From Pengzhenrongella frigida (lineage in GTDB: Bacteria > Actinomycetota > Actinomycetes > Actinomycetales > Cellulomonadaceae): 64,000 bases of DNA. A model generated the notes under the pieces. The model did no database searches. It worked only from the letters and a program-made list of their open reading frames with translations, and was not told where the DNA came from. A program made the translations under genes and the position numbers. Shown here piece by piece: positions 16,068-27,515 of this stretch; the stretch's first letter is position 1, and each line of letters opens with the position of its first letter. The stretch lies in NCBI RefSeq assembly GCF_004168625.1, contig NZ_SDWW01000016.1:1-64000 (forward strand), given 5' to 3'.

Positions 16068-17900
16068 TCAGGCCAACCGGACCACCAGGTCGCGGGCGGA
16101 CATGGGGTGCGCGAACAGGTAGCCCTGCGCGAGGTCGCACCCGACCTCGCGCATCTCGTGGCACTGCGCCTCGGTCTCGACGCCCTCGGCCGTGACCGTC
16201 ATGCCGAGCTCGTGGGCCAGCCGCGTCACGGCCGAGACGATCGTCGACGTGACCGCGTCCTGCCCCATCCCGACGACGAACGTCTGGTCGATCTTCACGA
16301 TGTCGACCGGAAACCGCTGGAGATAGCTCAGCGAGCAGTACCCCGTGCCGAAGTCGTCCAGGGCGAGCCTGACCCCGAGGGTCTTGAGGTCGTGCAGCAC
16401 ACGCATGCCGCGCCCGTTGTCCTCGAGGATCACCCCCTCGGTGACCTCGAGCACCAGGGCGGCGGGATCCATGCCGGCCGTGGCGAGCACGCGCGCGACG
16501 GCGGCGGGGAGCTGCGGCGCCATCAGCTGCCGGGCCGAGACGTTCACCGACAGGTCCAGCCGCCGGCCCGGGTGCCGGCGGTGCCAGGCGACCCAGTCCC
16601 GGCACGCCCGGGCGAGCACCCACTCCCCGACCTGGGTGATCTGCCCGCTCCGTTCCGCGACGGCGATCGCCGTCGCGGCCGGCACCGCTCCCTGGTCGGG
16701 GTGCGTCCAGCGCAGCAACGCCTCGGCGCCCACGACGGAGCCGTCCACCATGCGCACGATCGGTTGGTACACCAGGCTCAGCTGCCCGCGGGACCCCGCC
16801 GCGCGCAGCTCCTGCTCGAGCGCGTTGCGCTGGTGGTCCTCCTCGGCCGCCCGCAGGTCGATCGTCTGGTGGGCGCCACCGCCCTGCCGCTTGGCCTGGT
16901 ACTTCGCCATGTCCGCGTCGAGCACCAGGTGGTCCGACACGGTCCGGCCCGGTCCCGAGAACGCGATCCCGATGCCGGCGGACGCCACCAGCTCACCGGA
17001 GCTCACCGCGAACGGGAGCTCGAATGCCGCGTCGATCCGCTGCACGAGGACGTCGACGTCGGCCGGGTCCGCGAGGTCCTCGCACAGGAACACGAACTCG
17101 TCGCCGGACACGCGCGCGAGGGTGTCCCCGGTCCGCACCAGCAAGGACAGCCGGTTCGCGACGGCGACCAGCAACTCGTCCCCGACATGGTGCCCGTAGG
17201 CGTCGTTGACCCGCTTGAAGTTGTCCAGGTCGATGAACAGCACCGCCGCCAGGCTCTGCGAACGCCGAGCGCGGCGGGCCGCCTGGTCGATCCGTTCTTG
17301 GAGGAGCACCCGGTTGGGCAGCCCGGTGAGCGCGTCGTGCAGGGCCCGGTCGCGGTACCAGTCCGCCGCGTGCTGCGCGCGCTCGCGTGCCTGCGCGTTC
17401 AGCAGGTAGGCGGCCGCCACGTCGGCAAGCGTCTGCGCCGCCTCCGCCGCCTCCGCCGCGTCACCGGTGTCCGAGGTGAGCGGGCCCTCGGCGTCCCGAT
17501 ACAGCGCGAGCGCGCCCAGGCTGCCGCCGTCGTGGCGGAGCGGGAAGGCGAACACGGCCCGCACCCCGGCGGTGATCGCCGCCGGGCCGAAGGCCGGGTA
17601 CCGGTCGTCGGCGGCGACGAACGGGACCGCCACGGGTTCTCCCGTACGGAACACCGTCAGGCACGGTCCCTCGCCCAGGTCCGACTGGAGCTGCTCGACC
17701 TCGGGCGCCGCCTGGTTCGAGGCGGCGATGTAGCGCTGCGTGAGCCCGGGGCCGACCAGCGTGACGCCTGCTCCGGTGACCGGCAGGACCTCCACGATCC
17801 GCTCCACGAGGTGCTGCAGGATCTCCTGGACCGGGAAGTCGGTGAGCAGCGTCCGGGCAAACTCGCTGAGCACCAGCGACAGGCTGTCCTTGTGGACCAC
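16068..17900 (-). CDS. GAF-GGDEF-EAL cyclic-di-GMP protein (SGDEF variant)
   Basis: 610 aa, no membrane segment. GAF domain at about 20-175, GGDEF domain with motif RVSGDEF (Ser265-Gly266-Asp267-Glu268-Phe269; first Gly replaced by Ser) and I-site RTGD, and an EAL domain with EAL 393-395, EVTEGVI, DDFGTGYCS, VKIDQTFV and AEGVE intact. The phosphodiesterase side looks complete, the cyclase side is one residue off consensus, so a net hydrolase with a GTP- or product-binding GGDEF is plausible. Start set at GTG 17900, preceded by GGGAGGGATC; an upstream in-frame ATG at 18059 adds a basic segment without a ribosome site. Confidence 0.9.
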   Translation of the reverse strand: MVHKDSLSLVLSEFARTLLTDFPVQEILQHLVERIVEVLPVTGAGVTLVGPGLTQRYIAASNQAAPEVEQLQSDLGEGPCLTVFRTGEPVAVPFVAADDRYPAFGPAAITAGVRAVFAFPLRHDGGSLGALALYRDAEGPLTSDTGDAAEAAEAAQTLADVAAAYLLNAQARERAQHAADWYRDRALHDALTGLPNRVLLQERIDQAARRARRSQSLAAVLFIDLDNFKRVNDAYGHHVGDELLVAVANRLSLLVRTGDTLARVSGDEFVFLCEDLADPADVDVLVQRIDAAFELPFAVSSGELVASAGIGIAFSGPGRTVSDHLVLDADMAKYQAKRQGGGAHQTIDLRAAEEDHQRNALEQELRAAGSRGQLSLVYQPIVRMVDGSVVGAEALLRWTHPDQGAVPAATAIAVAERSGQITQVGEWVLARACRDWVAWHRRHPGRRLDLSVNVSARQLMAPQLPAAVARVLATAGMDPAALVLEVTEGVILEDNGRGMRVLHDLKTLGVRLALDDFGTGYCSLSYLQRFPVDIVKIDQTFVVGMGQDAVTSTIVSAVTRLAHELGMTVTAEGVETEAQCHEMREVGCDLAQGYLFAHPMSARDLVVRLA

Positions 17901-18006
17901 GATCCCTCCCCGGCGCCGACCAGGTCCCGCGGTGGTTCGGGCGGGCAGAGCGACGGTGCGACGCCTCCACGGTATCGAGCGCCCCGGCGGCCTGCACGCC
18001 CGCTCC

Positions 18007-18049
18007 GTCGATCCCCCGCGCTCCGTTCCCCCGCTTTGTCGATCCCCCG
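18007..18049 (+). repeat. short direct repeat upstream of GGDEF gene
   Basis: gtcgatcccccgcgct appears twice about 26 bases apart, followed by a second duplicated motif (ccccctgtcagg) at about 18060-18083. Function unknown; both lie just upstream of a candidate promoter. Confidence 0.55.
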
Positions 18050-18089
18050 CGCTGCCCATCCCCCTGTCAGGCCCCCTGTCAGGCGGGGG

Positions 18090-18117
18090 TTGCGCGCGCC
18101 GATCGCCTCGCTAGGGT
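18090..18117 (+). promoter_or_regulatory. candidate promoter of membrane GGDEF gene
   Basis: TTGCGC (18090-18095), 16-base spacer, TAGGGT (18112-18117), about 22 bases before ATG 18140, which has AAGGGGA as its ribosome site. Confidence 0.5.
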
Positions 18118-18139
18118 CGATAGCAAGAAGGGGACCTCG

Positions 18140-19249
18140 ATGATTCCGTGGATTTCCGCCCATCGCGCGCGGTTTCTGGCCATCGTGGCGGTGCTCCTGG
18201 CAGGTGCCGTGATGGGGAGCCTGCTCGACTCCTTTCCGGCGCGCCTGGTCACCTTCCTGCTCGCCCTGGGGATCGCGACGGCCATCGGCGGGGTCGGCAC
18301 GTCGCGGGGCTTCACCGCGCCGTCGACCTCGGCTGACGAGCGAGACCTGGCGGCGGAGCAGCGGGACCTGGCCGCCCGGCAACGAGATCAGGAAGCCGAG
18401 CACCGGGACTACGCGGCCGACCATCGCGACGAGGCGGCCGACCATCGCGACGACGGCGCCGACCTGCGCGACCAGGACGCCGCAGAGCGCGACCGTGACG
18501 CCGACCAGCGCGAGCGGCTTAGGTTGCGGGCGGTCGAGGCGTCGGAGACCGCCGGCCTCTCTCCGGGTTCGGTCCCCGACCTGGACCAGATCCAGGACAC
18601 CACCGCGGCCCGCACGCGGGCGCTGCACGATCGCAGCTCGGGCTGGACCGAGCGCACGGCAGCGGAGCTGGACCGCGACGCAGCCCTGGCGGATCGCGGT
18701 GCGTCTGCCGGTGAGCGCAGCAACGCCGAACGAGACCGCGACGCGGCCATGGCTGATCGCGGTGCGTCCGCCCGGGAGCGCGAGTTCGCCTCGGTCGACG
18801 GCCTGACCGGAGCCCTGCTCCGCGGCGTGGGGATGATCGAGCTCGAGCACGAGCACGTGCGGGCCCGGCGGACGAACCAACCGCTCGCGCTCGCGTTCAT
18901 CGACGTCGACCACCTGAAGGCGCTCAACGACTCGCGCGGCCACCCGGCCGGTGACCGGATGCTGCGCGAGGTCGCCGAGACGCTGCGCGCCTCGCTGCGC
19001 CCGTACGACCTGGTCATCCGTTACGGCGGGGACGAGTTCATCTGCGTCCTGTCGGGAATGGACCTCCTCGCCGCCGCGGCGCGGCTCTCGATCGTCAACA
19101 CGACGCTGGCGAACGCCGACGAGCCCGGCTCGGTGACGATCGGGCTCGCAGAGCTGCAGCCCGGGGAGCCGGTCGACCAGCTCGTCGCCCGCGCGGACGC
19201 CGCCCTACTCAAGGAGCGGCAGCGGCGACGTACCGGGGGTCAGTCCTGA
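18140..19249 (+). CDS. membrane diguanylate cyclase with RD-rich heptad linker
   Basis: 369 aa. Two close membrane helices (about 10-30 and 33-53) with almost no external loop, then a striking charged linker of seven-residue units (roughly AADHRDE) repeated from about residue 64 to 132 and again around 170-220, likely a long coiled coil. The C-terminal GGDEF domain has an intact RYGGDEF (296-300) and I-site RPYD, so it should synthesise c-di-GMP when dimerised. It is divergent from the GAF-GGDEF-EAL gene and convergent with the next GGDDF-EAL gene. Confidence 0.92.
   Translation: MIPWISAHRARFLAIVAVLLAGAVMGSLLDSFPARLVTFLLALGIATAIGGVGTSRGFTAPSTSADERDLAAEQRDLAARQRDQEAEHRDYAADHRDEAADHRDDGADLRDQDAAERDRDADQRERLRLRAVEASETAGLSPGSVPDLDQIQDTTAARTRALHDRSSGWTERTAAELDRDAALADRGASAGERSNAERDRDAAMADRGASAREREFASVDGLTGALLRGVGMIELEHEHVRARRTNQPLALAFIDVDHLKALNDSRGHPAGDRMLREVAETLRASLRPYDLVIRYGGDEFICVLSGMDLLAAAARLSIVNTTLANADEPGSVTIGLAELQPGEPVDQLVARADAALLKERQRRRTGGQS
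18331..18540 (+). repeat. in-frame 21-base heptad-coding repeat
   Basis: Degenerate 21-base units encoding variants of A-A-x-x-R-D-x; identical stretches such as gcggccgaccatcgcgacga recur back to back near 18415-18450. The periodicity predicts a continuous coiled coil in the protein. Confidence 0.7.
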
Positions 19250-19281
19250 CGATCACCCGCCGGTAGGCCGGGGGCAGCCGG

Positions 19282-20688
19282 TCAGTTCCGGCCGGGGAGC
19301 GGCCAGGTCATCGCCGATCGGCGCCACAGCGGCTCCGGATCGGGCCGGCCGAGCAGGAAGCCCTGACCGCCGACGAACCGGGCCGCACCGCTGACCGACT
19401 TCGCCGCACTGACGAGGTGCTGGAGGATCTCCTTCGTCTCGATCCCCTCGGCGATCACGACGGCGCCGCTCTCGGCCGCGTAGGCGACGATCGCCGCGAG
19501 CACGGCCCGCCCCGAGCCGCCCGTGCGCGCGCTGCTCACGACGTCACGGTCGATCTTGACGTACTCGGGGCGGACCCGAGTCAGCAGCCCGAGCGCGCCG
19601 TCGCCGGAGCCGAAGCCGTCGAGGGCCAGCTGGAAGCCGCGGTCTCGCAGGTCCTGGACGGGTCCGTCGACCAGGGCGATCCGCTCGTGGACGTTCTCGG
19701 GCAGCTCGATGACGACCTGGTCGGGCCGTCGGCCGGCGGCCTGGACCTCCCGCAGGATCTGTCGGCTGGTCTCACCGTCGTGGTCGAAGACCTCGGGGGC
19801 GATGTTGAGGAAGAGCAGGAGGTCGTCGGGCAGGTCACGGACCTGAGCGAGCGCCGACTCCCGGCACAGGGCATCGAGCTCGCCGACGCTGCCGAGCCGG
19901 GCCGCTCCCTCGAACGCGTCGCGCGGACCCGCGAGCCCGTACTCGGCCGAGGGCCGCGCGAGCGCCTCGAAACCGAGGATCCGGTGGGTGGTGAGGTTCC
20001 AGATCGGCTGGAACGCGGCCCCCATGTGCCGCCCGACGAGCAGCCGGCGCACGGCGGCGATCGTCGCCGCGGAGGTGTGCCACGGGGCAGACTCCGCCAT
20101 CTCGGTGTAGGTCGCGACCTGGTTGCGTCCGCGTCGCTTGGCCTCGGCCAGGGCCCGTGCGGCCCGTGCACGCATCGCCGCGGCGTCGATGCTGGGGTCG
20201 ATGTCGACGTGGGTGGGGTCGAACTCGGCGAGCCCGAGGCTGAGCGTGATCCCGGCCATCCGCGACAGCGCGGCCCGGCGGAACCGCTCGACCGGCCGCA
20301 GGGCGTTCTCCAACCCGGTGTGCGTCATGATCAGGGCGAAGTCGTCGCCCCCGAGGCGGAAGGCACGGTCGACCGAGCGGCCGGCCCGCAAGGCCCCCGC
20401 GAGGGCGACCAGGACCTTGTCGCCCTCGCCCCGGCCGAGGTTGTCGTTGACGAACGTGAAGTCGTCGACGTCGAGAAGCACGAGGACGAACGGCTCGCGG
20501 AAGCGGCGGGCGAGCGCGACCTCCTGCCGCAGCGCCTCCTGGAACGCCCAGTGGTCGCCCAGACCAGTGAGACGGTCGAGTGAGAGATCGGCGTCGGAGG
20601 CGGGTCGACCGACTCGGATCCGCCCGGTGAGACGGCGCGGCGGGACGCTGCGAGCTCCCAGCGCTAGCCGGTTGAGGTAGGTCGCCAT
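19282..20688 (-). CDS. GGDDF-EAL protein with altered EAL active site
   Basis: 468 aa, no membrane segment. GGDEF domain with RLGGDDF (113-117) and I-site RSVD; the Glu of GGDEF is Asp. EAL domain keeps EAL (241-243), Asn295, Glu328, Glu331, Lys378 and Glu414 but the usual DDFGTG is LDGFGSG (Asp357-Gly358), losing the second metal-binding Asp. The substitution predicts weak or no phosphodiesterase activity, so the protein may bind rather than cleave c-di-GMP. Start ATG 20688. It converges on the membrane GGDEF gene with a 32-base gap and is divergent from kaiC. Confidence 0.9.
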   Translation of the reverse strand: MATYLNRLALGARSVPPRRLTGRIRVGRPASDADLSLDRLTGLGDHWAFQEALRQEVALARRFREPFVLVLLDVDDFTFVNDNLGRGEGDKVLVALAGALRAGRSVDRAFRLGGDDFALIMTHTGLENALRPVERFRRAALSRMAGITLSLGLAEFDPTHVDIDPSIDAAAMRARAARALAEAKRRGRNQVATYTEMAESAPWHTSAATIAAVRRLLVGRHMGAAFQPIWNLTTHRILGFEALARPSAEYGLAGPRDAFEGAARLGSVGELDALCRESALAQVRDLPDDLLLFLNIAPEVFDHDGETSRQILREVQAAGRRPDQVVIELPENVHERIALVDGPVQDLRDRGFQLALDGFGSGDGALGLLTRVRPEYVKIDRDVVSSARTGGSGRAVLAAIVAYAAESGAVVIAEGIETKEILQHLVSAAKSVSGAARFVGGQGFLLGRPDPEPLWRRSAMTWPLPGRN

Positions 20689-20850: not shown

Positions 20851-22617
20851 ATGACCGTGTCAGCCGGAGAGCGCCACCCACCGCGGACGGAGGCGCGACT
20901 GGCGAAGGCGCCGTCGGGCATCCGCGGGTTCGACCAGGTCACCGACGGCGGGCTGCCCCGGGGCCGCCCGACCCTGGTGACCGGGGCGTCAGGCTCGGGA
21001 AAGACGATGTTCGCCGTCGAGTTCCTGGTGCGCGGTGCGCGCGACTACGGCGAGCCCGGGGTGCTGCTCACGTTCGAGGAGTCGGCCGACGACCTCATCG
21101 AGAACGTGGCCTCGCTCGGGTTCGACCTGACCCAGCTGGAGCGTGACGGGATGCTCGTGATCGACGCGATCCACGTCGACCCGGCGGAGGTCGTCGCGAC
21201 GGGCGCGTTCAACCTCGACGGACTGTTCATCCGGCTGGCCGGCGCCGTGGAAGAGGTCGGCGCGAAGCGGGTCGTGCTGGACACGATCGAGGTGCTGTTC
21301 GGCGCGCTGGGCAACGAGGGGATCGTGCGCGGCGAGCTCGCTCGGCTGTTCCGCTGGTTGAAGAGCCGGGGGCTGACGGCGGTCGTCACGGGGGAGCGGG
21401 GACGGGCCGGACAGCTGACCCGGTTCGGAATCGAGGAGTACGTCTCCGACTGCGTGATCGTCCTCGACCACCGCGTGCTCGACGACGTCTCGACCCGGCG
21501 CCTGCAGGTGGCGAAGTACCGCGGATCGGCACACGGCACCAACGAGTACCCCTTCCTGATCACGGACCGCGGCGTCACGGTGCTGCCGATCACGGCCGCG
21601 GGGCTCCGGTACGGCGCCCCGACCGAACGGGTCTCGACCGGCCTGGCCCAGCTCGACCACCTGCTCGGCGGCGGCGTGTACCGCGGGTCGATCGTGATGG
21701 TCAGCGGCAGTGCCGGGACCGGCAAGACGACCCTTGCCGCGCAGGTCGTCGACGCGGCATGCGCGCGCGGGGAGCAGGCGCTGTTCGTCTCGTTCGAGGA
21801 GTCCCCCGATCAGCTCGTCCGCGACATGCGCTCGGTCGGCATCGACCTGGGTCGATGGGTCGATGCCGGGGTGCTGCGGATGTGGTCCGAGCGGGCCACC
21901 GCGTTCGGGCTGGAGTCGCACCTCGGCCGCCTGGAACGCATGTTGGAGGAGCAGGCCCCGCAGGTCGTCGCGCTCGACGGGATCGCCAGCCTCGGCCACG
22001 TCGGCTCCCCGAGCGAGGTGACCTCGGCGGTGACCCGCGAGCTGGATCTGGTCAAGGCGCGCGGGATCACGGGGGTGCTCACCACGCTCACGCACGAGTC
22101 GGACTCCGCGGCGAGCGCCCTGTCGGTGTCGTCGCTGATCGACACCTGGCTGCTCCTGCGCAACGTGGAGACGGACGGCGAGCGCAACCGGCTGCTGTTC
22201 GTGATCAAGAGCCGGGGCACGGCGCACTCCAACCAGGTGCGCGAGTTCGTCCTGACGGACCACGGCGCCGAGCTGCTCGAGGTCGTCGTCGGGCCCCGGG
22301 GCGTCGCGACCGGGTCGGCCCGCGCGGCGCTGCTCGCCGAGGAGCACATCGGGGCCGTCACCCGCCGCGAGGACCTCGACCAGCGCCGTGCCGCCCTGGC
22401 GCAGCGGGCGGCGGAGGTGGCGGCCCAGATCGCCGTCCTGCAGGCGAAGCTCGCCGCCGAGGGGGCCGAGGTCGACCGGCTCGCCGCTCAGGAGACGCAC
22501 CGGGACGAGGCCCGCCGCAGCGCCCGGAGCGTGCTGGGCGCGGCGCGAGGGGACAGCACCGCCAGCGGGGACACCGCACCGGAGCACCCGACTCCGGGAC
22601 CGGAGGAAGAGGTCTGA
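20851..22617 (+). CDS. kaiC: KaiC-like double RecA-domain ATPase/autokinase
   Basis: 588 aa. CI domain: Walker A GASGSGKT at 45-52 and the catalytic pair FEE at 75-77. CII domain: Walker A GSAGTGKT at 286-293 and FEE at 315-317. In [12 protein letters not shown] aligns with the cyanobacterial phosphosites (HISTITDT), placing Ser427-Ser428 at the Ser431/Thr432 positions and Ser422 at the Thr426 position, so autophosphorylation is possible. The C-terminal 70 residues form an Ala/Glu/Arg coiled coil unlike the short KaiC A-loop tail, and no kaiA is present. Start ATG 20851 behind GGGAGG. First gene of a four-gene overlapping unit. Confidence 0.93.
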
Positions 22618-22619
22618 GG

Positions 22620-22982
22620 ATGACCACCCGAAAGAAGGACCCGTCGGGCGCGGCGGGCGAGAACGGCGACCCGGAGGAGGTCTTCGAGTTGCGTCTGTAC
22701 GTCGCCGGCCAGAGCCCGCGGTCGGTGCGTGCCATCGAGAACCTGCGGCAGGTGTGCGAGACGTACCTGCCCGGGCGGTTCACCATCGAGCTGATCGATC
22801 TGCTGGAGCACCCGAGGCTCGCGCGCGGCGACGAGATCATCGCGGTCCCCACCCTGGTCCGCCGGCTGCCGCAGCCGATCCGCAAGATCATCGGCGACCT
22901 GTCGGACACCGAGCAGGTCCTCGTGGGGCTTCAGCTGCGTCCCGACGGGCGCGACAGGAAGGACGGGCGCGACGCATCATGA
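22620..22982 (+). CDS. kaiB: KaiB-like thioredoxin-fold protein 1
   Basis: 120 aa. Core [20 protein letters not shown], then [20 protein letters not shown] and [16 protein letters not shown], very close to cyanobacterial KaiB. Cyanobacterial KaiB switches fold and binds the KaiC CI ring. The ATG lies two bases after the kaiC stop, with a purine-rich GGAGGAAGAGG tract upstream. Extra charged N- and C-terminal segments flank the domain. Confidence 0.93.
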
Positions 22983-23299
22983 CCGCCGACGTCCCGGTCC
23001 GCTGGTATCTCACGCTGTATGTGAGCGGAGCGTCGCCGCGCTCGGCAGCCGCCCTGGAAGCCGTGCGCCGGCTGGCGGACGAGGACCTCGCCGGGCAGGT
23101 CGAGCTGGAGGTCGTGGACGTGCGCGACGAGCCGGCGCTCGTCGTGCGGGACGACATCCTTGCGGTCCCGACGCTCGTCAAACGGCTGCCGCCGCCGCTG
23201 CGCAAGCTCGTCGGTGACCTCTCGGACACGGGCCGGGTCCGGCTGGCGCTCGATCTGCGGCCCGAGCCGCCGGTCCGCACCGATCAGGAGGGATCATGA
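22979..23299 (+). CDS. kaiB: KaiB-like thioredoxin-fold protein 2
   Basis: 106 aa second Kai[41 protein letters not shown] and [16 protein letters not shown] match KaiB. It diverges from the first copy (for example in the segment after residue 40), so the pair is not a recent duplication. ATGA overlap with the first kaiB and with the next gene. Two KaiB-like genes per KaiC suggest one may act on KaiC and the other on the PAS-GGDEF partner. Confidence 0.93.
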
Positions 23300-26196
23300 A
23301 CCACGTCCCGCGAGCGCGCTCGAGCGGCGCGACGTCGCTCACGGACCGGGAGAGCGCGCTGCTGCGCGAGATCGGCGACCTGACCGCCGCGCTCGACGCC
23401 ATCCGCACCGGCGGCGTCGACGCGGTGATGGTCCCGGGGCCCGACGGCGACAGCCTCTACACGCTGACCAGCGCCGACCGCCCCTACCGCGTGTTCGTCG
23501 AGGAGATGGGCGACGGCGCCGCCACGATCTCGGAGCGCGGGATCATCCTCTACGCGAACAACCGATTCGCCGAGCTGGTGCGCCGCGAGCGAAGTGCGCT
23601 CCTCGGGCGCGACCTCACCACCTTCGTGCGCCCGACGCAGGGCGACGTCCTGGCGAGGCTGACGAGGACCGCCCCCGCGACGACGCGCCACGCCGAGGTG
23701 GATCTCGTCCGGCCGGACGGCTCGACCATCCCGGTGCTCGCCTCCGTCACCGGCCTGGACCTCGACGGCGTCGTCGTCCGCTGTCTGGTCGTCAGCGACC
23801 TGACCGCCCGGGTGGAGGCCGAGGAGCGGTTCCGGATCACGATGGACAGCGCCACGATCGGGATGGCCCTGGTCTCTCCCGGGGGGCGGTTCCTCCTGGT
23901 CAATCCCGCGCTGTGCCAGATCCTCGGCCGCGACGCCGAGCGGATGAGGGCGACGACCTGGACCGAGGTGACCCACCCGGACGACCTCGACGAGGGCCGG
24001 AGCCTGATGGGTGAGCTCACGGCCGGGCGGGTCCCGTCGTTCCGCACGCGCAAGCGCTACCTGCGGCCGGACGGCTCGGTGGTCTGGGGAGACCTCACGG
24101 AATCGTGCGTGCGCAACGACGACGGGTCGGTGCGGTACTTCATCGCCCAGGTCATGGACGTGACCGACGCGGTGCGGGCCGAGCGCGAGCTCGTCCGCCG
24201 CGAGGCAGAGCTCCGGGCGATCGCTGACAGCTCGGCCGACATCCTGGTGCGAACGTCGCCCGAGGGTCGGATCGACTACGTGTCGCCCGCCGTCACCCGC
24301 ATTCTCGGTTGGGACCCCCAGGAGATCCTCGGGCTCCCGGCAGCCGAGTTCGTGCACCCGGACGACCTGGCGCAGGCTGTCGCCCCGGGGCCGTCGACCG
24401 GGTGGTTCCCACCGCGCACTCGGCTGCGCCGCAGGGACGGGACGTATCGATGGATCTCCGCACGCGTGACCCCGGTCGGGGACCCGGGCAACCCCGAGGG
24501 CTTCGTGGCCGTCGTGCGGGACGTCGAGGAGCTGGTCCGGCAGGAGCGCGCGCTCGAGGAGTCCGAGCGGCACTATCGATCCCTGGTCGCGGGAGCGGCG
24601 GAGGCGATGTACGAGGCCGGACCCGACCGCCTCGTCACGTGGATGTCGCCGTCGATCACGGCGCTGCTGGGCTGGGCGCCCGACGAGCTCGTCGGCACGG
24701 CGATGTCCAACCTGCTCCATCCGGACGACAAGGATCGGATCGAGCCGCTGAGCGACGAGATCTATGGCGCCACCGACGCGTTCGCCCGGACCCACGCCCT
24801 GCGGATGCGCACGAAGGAGGGCACGTACCGGTGGGTGGCGGCGCGCGCTCGTACGGTGGTCGACGCCGACGGGCGCCTCATCCGGATCGTGGCCGGCCTG
24901 CAGGACATCGACGAGCTGGTGAGGACCCAGGCTCGGCTGCAGGCCACCTTGGACACCGAGTTCGACCCGCACGTGGTGCTGACCGCGGTCCGCGACGAGA
25001 CCGGCCAGATCGCCGACTTCGTCTACACCGAGGCCAACCGGGCGGCCTGCGAGTACAACGGACTGCCCCGCGCGCAGCTCCTGGGGCGTCGGCTTCTCGA
25101 CCTGATGCCGGGGCACATCGACTCGGAGATCTTTGAGGTGTATCGGGCGGTCGTCGCCACCGGTGAGCCACTGAAGATCGACGGCTTCGCGTACGAGAAC
25201 GAGCTCAAGGGCGGCGAGGTGCGGCGCTACGACGTCCAGACCGCGAAGCTCGATGACGGCCTGTCCTACACCTGGCGCGATGTCACCGACCAGTACGCCG
25301 CGCGCGCCGCGCTCGCGGCCTCGGAGGAGATCCATCGGCTCCTGACGGAGAACCTGTCCGACGTCGTGGTGCATCTGCGGGCCGGGACGATCGCCTGGGT
25401 GTCTCCCTCGTTGACCGGCTCGCTCGGCTGGACTGCGCAGGACTGGCTCGATCATCCGATCGCCGAGTTCATCCACCCGGACGACCTGGGAGCTGTCGAC
25501 GAGCACCGGGACGCCCTCGCCGCCGGGGGGTCCGACCTGTTCCGCCTGCGGATCCACGCCAAGGACGGCCGCAGCCACTGGATCCAGGTCCACGCCAAGC
25601 CGTTCTACGACCGGGACGGCGTCCAGGACGGGGTCGTCGCCTCCTTCCGGATCATCGATCCCGAGGTCGCCGCCGAGGAGGACCTGGAGGCGCGGGCCCG
25701 GTCCGACGAGCTGACGGGCCTGATGAACCGCCGCGAGGTGCTCGAGCGCGTGGCGGTCATGACCAGTCATCCGCGCCGCACCGGCGAGGAGGCGGCGGTG
25801 CTCTTCGGCGACATCGACGGGTTCAAGGCGATCAACGACGACTACGGCCACTCGGCCGGGGACGAGGTGCTGCACACGGTCGCCATCCGCGTCGCCTCCT
25901 GCCTGCGCAGCGGGGACATCGCCGCACGGATCGGCGGCGACGAGCTCCTCGTGCTGCTCGACGGCGTCCACGAGCTCGCCAATGCCGTGGACATCGCCGA
26001 CAACATCCGCCGGGCCGTCGCCCATCCCATCGCGATCGACGGCGTGACCGTCACCGTCACGCTGAGCATCGGGGTGACCCTGGCCGTTCCTGGGGAGAGC
26101 GTCGACGACATGATCGCGCGCGCCGACGAGGCGATGTACGAGGCGAAGCAGGCGGGCGGCGACCGCGTCGTCGCGAAGCTGCCGCGACCCGCCTGA
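23296..26196 (+). CDS. KaiBC-linked six-PAS diguanylate cyclase (GGDEL)
   Basis: 966 aa, no membrane helix. A short N-terminal segment with GGVDAVMVPGPDGDSLYTL resembles the leader of PAS histidine kinases encoded beside kaiBC in other bacteria. PAS domains begin near residues 64, 174, 303, 418, 544 and 675; a GGDEF domain follows (about 795-965) with RIGGDEL at 880-884 and an I-site RSGD (871-874). The last motif residue is Leu not Phe, a mild change. ATGA overlap with kaiB2. Here the usual kinase output of KaiBC neighbours is replaced by a predicted c-di-GMP synthase. Confidence 0.92.
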   Translation: MNHVPRARSSGATSLTDRESALLREIGDLTAALDAIRTGGVDAVMVPGPDGDSLYTLTSADRPYRVFVEEMGDGAATISERGIILYANNRFAELVRRERSALLGRDLTTFVRPTQGDVLARLTRTAPATTRHAEVDLVRPDGSTIPVLASVTGLDLDGVVVRCLVVSDLTARVEAEERFRITMDSATIGMALVSPGGRFLLVNPALCQILGRDAERMRATTWTEVTHPDDLDEGRSLMGELTAGRVPSFRTRKRYLRPDGSVVWGDLTESCVRNDDGSVRYFIAQVMDVTDAVRAERELVRREAELRAIADSSADILVRTSPEGRIDYVSPAVTRILGWDPQEILGLPAAEFVHPDDLAQAVAPGPSTGWFPPRTRLRRRDGTYRWISARVTPVGDPGNPEGFVAVVRDVEELVRQERALEESERHYRSLVAGAAEAMYEAGPDRLVTWMSPSITALLGWAPDELVGTAMSNLLHPDDKDRIEPLSDEIYGATDAFARTHALRMRTKEGTYRWVAARARTVVDADGRLIRIVAGLQDIDELVRTQARLQATLDTEFDPHVVLTAVRDETGQIADFVYTEANRAACEYNGLPRAQLLGRRLLDLMPGHIDSEIFEVYRAVVATGEPLKIDGFAYENELKGGEVRRYDVQTAKLDDGLSYTWRDVTDQYAARAALAASEEIHRLLTENLSDVVVHLRAGTIAWVSPSLTGSLGWTAQDWLDHPIAEFIHPDDLGAVDEHRDALAAGGSDLFRLRIHAKDGRSHWIQVHAKPFYDRDGVQDGVVASFRIIDPEVAAEEDLEARARSDELTGLMNRREVLERVAVMTSHPRRTGEEAAVLFGDIDGFKAINDDYGHSAGDEVLHTVAIRVASCLRSGDIAARIGGDELLVLLDGVHELANAVDIADNIRRAVAHPIAIDGVTVTVTLSIGVTLAVPGESVDDMIARADEAMYEAKQAGGDRVVAKLPRPA

Positions 26197-26285: not shown

Positions 26286-27515
<1,230 letters not shown>

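What the first reader, a model, noticed from the sequence alone, without database searches (positions are those of the whole stretch)
20851..26196. A clock-like KaiC-KaiB-KaiB unit fused by operon to a PAS6-GGDEF c-di-GMP synthase
Seen: kaiC, two kaiB copies and a six-PAS GGDEF gene sit in one run with 2-base and ATGA junctions. KaiC keeps both Walker A motifs, both FEE pairs and Ser427-Ser428 at the phosphosite positions. Known: KaiC/KaiB form a phosphorylation switch in cyanobacteria, and other bacteria pair them with PAS histidine kinases whose N-terminus looks like this one. Inference: here the kinase is replaced by a cyclase, so KaiBC state may set c-di-GMP levels directly. No kaiA is present. 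I know of no described KaiBC to c-di-GMP circuit, so this is the strongest candidate for a new system.
Basis: partly seen in the sequence, partly recalled or inferred. Interest (0 to 1): 0.9.

Follow-up and report, generated by a model that had tools for sequence, protein, structure and literature searches.

The report
Kai-type timer wired to c-di-GMP synthase
A bacterium, by its closest relatives an actinobacterium, carries a cyanobacterial-clock-like switch (KaiC with two KaiB proteins) in one gene run with an enzyme that should make the second messenger c-di-GMP, attached through a short protein module that we find almost only next to such switches.

Summary
kaiC (20851-22617), kaiB1, kaiB2 and a PAS-GGDEF gene (to 26196) form one tight run (2-base gap, two ATGA overlaps). 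KaiC is of the KaiA-independent Rhodobacter type, with Ser427-Ser428 and a C-terminal coiled-coil extension. The main new result is a ~48-residue N-terminal module on the PAS-GGDEF protein, without a Pfam family. It sits right after kaiB across phyla; in two samples (396 and 299 genomes) every strong hit lies in a genome with a kaiB match (one of them a broken remnant). The same module carries histidine kinases (53 of 86 ORFs), c-di-GMP enzymes (12 of 86), SpoIIE phosphatases or sigma-54 activators. KaiB1 and KaiB2 are two old paralogue classes. The window's protein is a chimera: its first ~200 residues go with the kai lineage, the part from about residue 440 with another cyclase of the same genome; its nearest kai relative has no GGDEF. 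'Kinase replaced by cyclase' is thus supported by anatomy. That KaiBC state controls c-di-GMP is inference. A 2011 paper already noted GGDEF/EAL genes beside kaiBC, so this is a new variant of a known kind.

The parts
20851..22617 (+). kaiC, 588 aa, double-domain ATPase of the KaiA-independent (R. sphaeroides / KaiC2) type
   Evidence: Pfam PF06745 two stretches; best solved match 8DBA, E 3e-170, residues 17-569 on 5-557
20983..21006 (+). Walker A of the first KaiC domain (residues 45-52)
21706..21729 (+). Walker A of the second KaiC domain (residues 286-293)
22129..22134 (+). Ser427-Ser428 phosphosite pair
   Evidence: aligned
22333..22557 (+). C-terminal extension aligned with the coiled coil of R. 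sphaeroides KaiC
   Evidence: alignment; coiled coil of 8DBA from PMC10076222 passages
22620..22982 (+). kaiB1, proximal KaiB class, 120 aa
   Evidence: Pfam PF07689 E 1e-25; first-copy class in KaiB tree
22979..23299 (+). kaiB2, distal KaiB class, 106 aa
   Evidence: Pfam PF07689 E 7e-22; second-copy class in KaiB tree; AlphaFold model with order beta-alpha-beta-alpha-beta-beta-alpha
23296..26196 (+). PAS-GGDEF protein, 966 aa, predicted diguanylate cyclase
23359..23502 (+). N-terminal module of about 48 residues shared by proteins encoded just after kaiB
   Evidence: no Pfam family at E<=1 for the window stretch
23494..23811 (+). PAS1; with the N-terminal module the part that goes with the kai lineage
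   Evidence: (PAS_9 at residues 74-170)
25699..26163 (+). GGDEF domain, signature GGDEL at residues 880-884 with RSGD I-site upstream

Best explanation
The run encodes a KaiA-less KaiBC switch and a dedicated partner protein. KaiC is expected to autophosphorylate on Ser427/Ser428 and hydrolyse ATP without KaiA, so that its phosphorylation follows the cell's ATP/ADP state, as in R. sphaeroides. KaiB1 and KaiB2 are expected to bind one KaiC state. The N-terminal module of the PAS-GGDEF protein docks on the KaiBC assembly, and this contact, together with whatever the PAS domains sense, sets pairing of the GGDEF domains and so c-di-GMP synthesis. Shown: genes, motifs, gene order, near-exclusive linkage of the module to kaiB, exchangeable output domains, two KaiB classes, chimeric make-up of this cyclase. 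Inferred: docking, direction of signal, cyclase activity, and timing.
For: Module-kaiB linkage: own phylum, 9 of 9 genomes with strong module hits also have a kaiB match, 0 of 377 genomes without a kaiB match have a strong hit; second phylum sample, 9 of 9 and 0 of 264. The module starts within 500 bp after a KaiB domain in 84 of the 87 matches that have one upstream on the strand. Output domains vary behind the module: 12 of 86 module ORFs carry GGDEF, GGDEF-EAL or HD-GYP. KaiC closest to R. sphaeroides KaiC, no KaiA match. GGDE and I-site kept. Three KaiC loci whose genomes show no KaiB have no module gene at the locus (L086, L107, L126; for L126 none in the genome).
Against: No interaction, phosphorylation or cyclase data. 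The signature is GGDEL, and activity of that form is not shown. The nearest relative (L087) keeps kaiC, two kaiB and the module but has no GGDEF, so the cyclase is not needed by the system in general. A distance-correlation test did not single out KaiB1 or KaiB2 as partner of the module. KaiB often occurs without the module: 10 of 19 kaiB-matching genomes of the own phylum have no strong hit and 26 of 35 in the second sample have none. The three KaiB-less loci form one clade, so they are one event. Three cases loosen the link: an orphan module-kinase (L176), a module gene beside a kaiB remnant (G572), and an HD-GYP module gene before kaiC (L133).
Confidence: 0.55

Rival explanations
1. The PAS protein is an input, not an output: its PAS domains sense redox, light or a ligand and the protein sets the KaiBC state; the GGDEF part is a second branch or a GTP/c-di-GMP-sensing part.
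For: Six PAS_4 stretches. For R. sphaeroides the operon's histidine kinase was suggested to carry a redox signal to KaiBC (PMC5520375 passage). PAS-only partners exist (9 of 86; L087).
Against: Exchange of many effector types behind one module looks like outputs being swapped; an input needs no enzyme at its C-terminus.
Confidence: 0.25
2. Gene neighbourhood only: in a genome with 45 GGDEF domains, and with three more c-di-GMP genes just upstream, the cyclase came to lie in the run without working with KaiBC.
For: 45 GGDEF matches in the genome, six on this contig; neighbours at 16068-20688.
Against: The cyclase carries the kaiB-linked module, the only match in the genome, and overlaps kaiB2 by four bases; module linkage to kaiB is near exclusive.
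Confidence: 0.08
3. The GGDEL domain is not a cyclase but a c-di-GMP or GTP receptor that feeds back on KaiBC.
For: GGDEL instead of GGDEF, I-site kept.
Against: GGDE and the DIDGFK..ND and GH..GD stretches (recalled as metal and substrate motifs) stand in the alignment, and the domain matches PF00990 over positions 2-160 of 161 (E 4e-42).
Confidence: 0.12

Closest known systems
Rhodobacter sphaeroides KaiBC system (PDB 8DBA, 8FWI, 8FWJ; PMC10076222, passages read)
   Same: KaiC collinear over 553 residues with the C-terminal coiled coil, Ser-Ser site; KaiB1 and KaiB2 best match the KaiB of 8FWJ; no KaiA
   Different: there a histidine kinase is encoded in the operon with kaiBC (PMC5520375 passage); here two kaiB and a PAS-GGDEF protein
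kaiC-kaiB with a histidine kinase or GGDEF/EAL gene in non-cyanobacterial bacteria (PMC3164672, section 17 read)
   Same: same gene context, reported in 2011 for GGDEF/EAL as well as kinase
   Different: that section describes no shared N-terminal module of the kaiB-linked genes (its RtaNt module belongs to kaiC-kinase pairs without kaiB) and no KaiB classes; GGDEF without EAL behind the module is the rare form in my set (1 of 86 module ORFs)
SasA output of the cyanobacterial clock (PMC13001216 introduction passages; SasA's KaiB-like domain from PMC3164672)
   Same: a dedicated signalling protein reads the Kai proteins
   Different: no KaiB-like domain in the PAS-GGDEF protein among the 10 Pfam families or the 25 of 34 NCBIfam families shown; second messenger instead of phosphotransfer
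c-di-GMP effects on the S. elongatus clock (PMC13001216, abstract and passages read)
   Same: links c-di-GMP and a Kai clock
   Different: there c-di-GMP was altered with E. coli enzymes and acted on the clock, by the authors' account indirectly; the passages seen name no Kai-linked cyclase

Membership tests
KaiC (KaiC2 / R. sphaeroides type) | two fused KaiC ATPase domains with both Walker A motifs | tested here: met
KaiC (KaiC2 / R. sphaeroides type) | Ser-Ser at the phosphosites (KaiC2 rule from PMC5520375 passage) | tested here: met
KaiC (KaiC2 / R. sphaeroides type) | C-terminal coiled-coil extension | tested here: met
   by sequence alignment to 8DBA only; no oligomer data
KaiC (KaiC2 / R. 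sphaeroides type) | autophosphorylation and ATPase activity without KaiA | not testable with these tools
   needs protein
KaiABC circadian clock | kaiA present | tested here: not met
   0 matches in the draft genome; control found S. elongatus
KaiABC circadian clock | self-sustained rhythm | not testable with these tools
   needs culture
KaiB | KaiB domain over curated Pfam cut-off | tested here: met
   both copies; NCBIfam clock-KaiB models match below their cut-offs
Diguanylate cyclase | GG(D/E)EF signature | tested here: inconclusive
   GGDEL; first four residues kept
Diguanylate cyclase | RxxD inhibitory site before the signature (not in all cyclases; recalled) | tested here: met
   RSGD
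Diguanylate cyclase | enzyme activity | not testable with these tools
   needs protein
kaiBC-linked signalling gene with N-terminal module | module at the N-terminus, encoded directly after kaiB | tested here: met

The most novel reading that the evidence does not exclude
The N-terminal module is a general docking plug for KaiBC: one conserved Kai timer or energy gauge drives, through this plug, whichever effector is fused behind it (kinase, c-di-GMP synthase or hydrolase, SpoIIE phosphatase, sigma-54 activator), with KaiB2 as a specialised adaptor. In this genome a resident cyclase was captured by fusion to make a direct KaiBC-to-c-di-GMP circuit.
Probability: 0.45. Interest if true: 0.82.

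Novelty: new variant of a known kind. Interest (0 to 1): 0.63.

Why it matters
What KaiBC does outside cyanobacteria, and how its state leaves the Kai proteins, is open. A short module that marks the Kai-linked partner in bacteria and archaea names the likely contact and makes it testable with small constructs. If right, Kai switches are a plug-in energy or time gauge, and this locus is a case where the readout is a second messenger that commonly controls attachment, motility and development.

Tried and rejected
Distance-correlation (mirror-tree) test on 53 loci: the module tracks KaiC most (partial 0.37), but PAS1 does too (0.31), and neither KaiB stands out; inconclusive. Fold search of the module-PAS1 model: the 50 hits shown of 574 at E<=0.001 are mainly PAS/LOV structures, and none of them explains the module; the module profile has no solved relative (best E 0.32). 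Promoter and terminator scans found nothing, which says little in a high-G+C organism. Pfam weak hit RMC1_N to a consensus of the module (E 0.32) dismissed. 'Cyclase simply inherited from the GGDEF-EAL kai loci' rejected: the window's KaiC sits in a 7-row set with kinase, HD-GYP, no-output and unclear relatives, apart from a set that holds five GGDEF-EAL loci (SH-aLRT 99 and 100; quick tree without mixture model, long branches reported, one of them L122 in the 7-row set). Legionella kai operon as precedent: recalled only; searches for its third gene by locus tag found no paper.

Rows dropped: for the two-by-two counts I used module hits with E<1e-17 and left out three weak ones (G636, at a kai locus; G451 and G457, partial, in genomes without a kaiB match; their fetched stretches, L180 of 3.2 kb and L179, show no kai genes). 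Counted at E<=0.001, 10 of 12 module genomes have a kaiB match. One of the nine strong ones (G572) has only a kaiB remnant with stops, and my profiles found no kai gene in its stretch L178. In the second sample all nine hits were counted, one of them weak (G750, E 3.7e-5). That (and 49 and 51) drew the same genomes is read from their handles and equal numbers, not stated by the tool. In the trees I left out L182 and L184 (duplicates of L125 and L071) and L136.
Full report
OBSERVATION. The reading frames are as described: kaiC 20851-22617, kaiB1 22620-22982, kaiB2 22979-23299, PAS-GGDEF 23296-26196, then a PLP-enzyme gene (looks like trpB) from 26286. The first gap is two bases and the next two junctions are ATGA overlaps. 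KaiC has two Walker A motifs (residues 45, 286), two FEES (75, 315) and Ser427-Ser428. The cyclase domain is complete but reads GGDEL, with an RSGD I-site. KaiA gave no match in the genome.

WHAT KIND OF KAI SYSTEM. The best solved match of KaiC is R. sphaeroides KaiC (8DBA, E 3e-170), collinear through the C-terminal coiled coil; S. elongatus KaiC (1U9I; organism recalled) gives 5e-94. Both KaiBs match best the KaiB bound to R. sphaeroides KaiC (8FWJ). PMC10076222 (part of the abstract and passages) describes that system as a KaiA-less clock driven by the ATP-to-ADP ratio. The Ser-Ser pair is the KaiC2 pattern (PMC5520375 passages).

RARITY. In 297 genomes of the same order, KaiB matches in 11 and passes the family cut-off in 2, this one included; in 396 genomes of the phylum 19 match kaiB1. 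The nearest KaiC found is in a Dermatophilaceae MAG (L087; 72% over the best tblastn segment, which may leave out records near the window's own genome; 76% over 481 columns). That the window is actinobacterial is inferred from this.

THE MODULE. The ~48 residues before PAS1 recur at the start of the gene after kaiB. A profile grown from the window found 86 ORFs in 82 of the 105 sequences searched (window plus L048-L151); 84 of the 87 matches that have a KaiB domain upstream on the strand start within 500 bp of it. Pfam has no family for the window's stretch even at E 1. Whole-genome tests: in 396 genomes of the own phylum, strong hits in 9, all with a kaiB match, one of these a remnant; in 299 genomes of the phylum of a betaproteobacterial locus, hits in 9, all among the 35 with KaiB, each beside kaiB by coordinates. 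Fisher exact values are 1.5e-13 and 1.5e-9, without correction for kinship. The reverse does not hold: 10 of 19 and 26 of 35 kaiB-matching genomes lack a (strong) module hit. In 40 genomes that I chose from the 80 KaiC loci, 37 have the module. Of five off-locus hits fetched, four lie at further kaiC-kaiB loci and one (L176) is an orphan kinase; a sixth, weak and partial (G700 contig 303), was not fetched. The model of module plus PAS1 (mean pLDDT 89) gives a long helix and a beta hairpin before the PAS domain, the hairpin less certain (blocks of 77 and 57).

OUTPUTS ARE SWAPPED. Of the 86 module ORFs: kinase 53, PAS only 9, GGDEF-EAL 8, cut by contig end 4, HD-GYP 3, sigma-54 activator 2, SpoIIE 2, and one each of GGDEF (the window), PAS/GAF, probable kinase, split frame, unclear. 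Most kinase labels rest on my own motif-seeded profile. Pfam was run on 20 module ORFs without a clear output, later on L097, and on the GGDEF ones (L099 and L100 by my profile only); six short Bacteroidota 'PAS only' ORFs (L075, L098, L101, L105, L119, L120) were not scanned and are labelled by my profiles and likeness to L082, and two of these loci (L075, L082) have a kinase frame directly after. Two Methylococcaceae loci carry the module twice, on a kinase (L100; in L099 a split frame) and then on a GGDEF-EAL protein. A distant KaiC clade (SH-aLRT 100) holds kaiB-kaiC-PAS-GGDEF runs in L143 and L144; L140 and L145 have kaiB followed directly by PAS-GGDEF with no KaiC found by my profile. 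L143's protein also has an HD-GYP domain and a weak module hit.

TWO KAIB CLASSES. In 68 loci with exactly two kaiB after kaiC, all first and all second copies fall on opposite sides of one branch (SH-aLRT 99; 81 columns, quick tree, many other forks unresolved). So the pair is an old duplication kept in order, not a local repeat. Single KaiBs beside the module score mostly as the first class, some as the second, several by small margins, so the second class is not strictly needed. KaiB2 is modelled with the order beta-alpha-beta-alpha-beta-beta-alpha, which I recall as the KaiC-binding fold; KaiB1 was not modelled.

ORIGIN OF THIS CYCLASE. In 40-residue blocks, residues 41-200 are 45-82% identical to L087's partner protein, against 12-52% to the genome's own PAS-GGDEF paralogue on contig 49. 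Residues 201-280 are alike to both. At 321-400 the global alignment gives the paralogue no counterpart and L087 40-42%. From 441 to 960 the paralogue is at 41-80% and L087 at 18% or absent. The last 366 residues are 65% identical to that paralogue (one TAG inside the matched stretch). So the gene is a chimera, switched somewhere between about residues 200 and 440; repeated PAS domains blur the point. L087's protein has three PAS domains and no GGDEF. Direction of copying between the two genes is not shown.

TREE. On 109 KaiC rows the window and L087 pair (99) inside a 7-row set (99) with kinase, HD-GYP and unclear outputs; five of the eight GGDEF-EAL loci lie in another 7-row set (100); starred branches force at least four changes for GGDEF-EAL. 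Kai-to-c-di-GMP coupling therefore arose, or was lost, several times. Labels are one per locus; L099 and L100, which also have a kinase-type module gene, were labelled GGDEF-EAL.

MECHANISM. Best reading: KaiBC state acts through the module on GGDEF pairing (0.55). Input role of the PAS protein is the main rival (0.25). Binding, direction and activity are inference.

LITERATURE. PMC3164672 (section 17) reported GGDEF/EAL genes beside kaiBC in 2011. PMC13001216 (abstract and passages) shows that c-di-GMP levels shift the S. elongatus clock. PMC4794148 (passages) gives kaiC, kaiB and a PAS histidine kinase gene in Rhodopseudomonas. Full-text searches for Kai with GGDEF, c-di-GMP or HD-GYP listed, by titles and abstract starts, no experimental KaiBC-to-cyclase circuit; I did not open the other listed papers, and the library lacks most subscription papers. 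I ran no search aimed at a description of the module itself.

Noticed in passing
window 16068-20688: Three more c-di-GMP genes just upstream: GAF-GGDEF-EAL (16068-18059, -), GGDEF (18140-19249, +), GGDEF-EAL (19282-20688, -, with GGDDF); the genome has 45 GGDEF matches, six of them on this contig.
   Followed up: partly
L133 7822-13445: kaiC-kaiB-kaiB locus of the same phylum with a module-PAS-HD-GYP gene before kaiC and a module-PAS-SpoIIE gene after kaiB.
   Followed up: partly
L122 7824-11678: Record titled Synechococcus lacustris: kaiC-kaiB followed by a module-PAS-HD-GYP gene, in a genome that also has KaiA.
   Followed up: no
L176 7306-9639: Module-PAS-histidine kinase without kai genes in the fetched 20 kb, in the genome behind L081 (titled Fibrobacteres), which has other kai loci.
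   Followed up: no
L201 1740-5146: The genome of the closest relative L087 has a second kaiC-kaiB-module-PAS-kinase run.
   Followed up: no
L140 8593-11045; L145 8728-10342: kaiB followed directly by a PAS-GGDEF gene with no KaiC found by my profile in the fetched 20 kb.
   Followed up: no
L086, L107, L126: KaiC of records titled Ignavibacteria and Chlorobiaceae whose genomes have no KaiB match and no module gene at the locus.
   Followed up: partly
window 26286-27515: PLP-dependent enzyme gene (PF00291; looks like a stand-alone trpB, by eye) about 90 bases after the PAS-GGDEF gene on the same strand.
   Followed up: no
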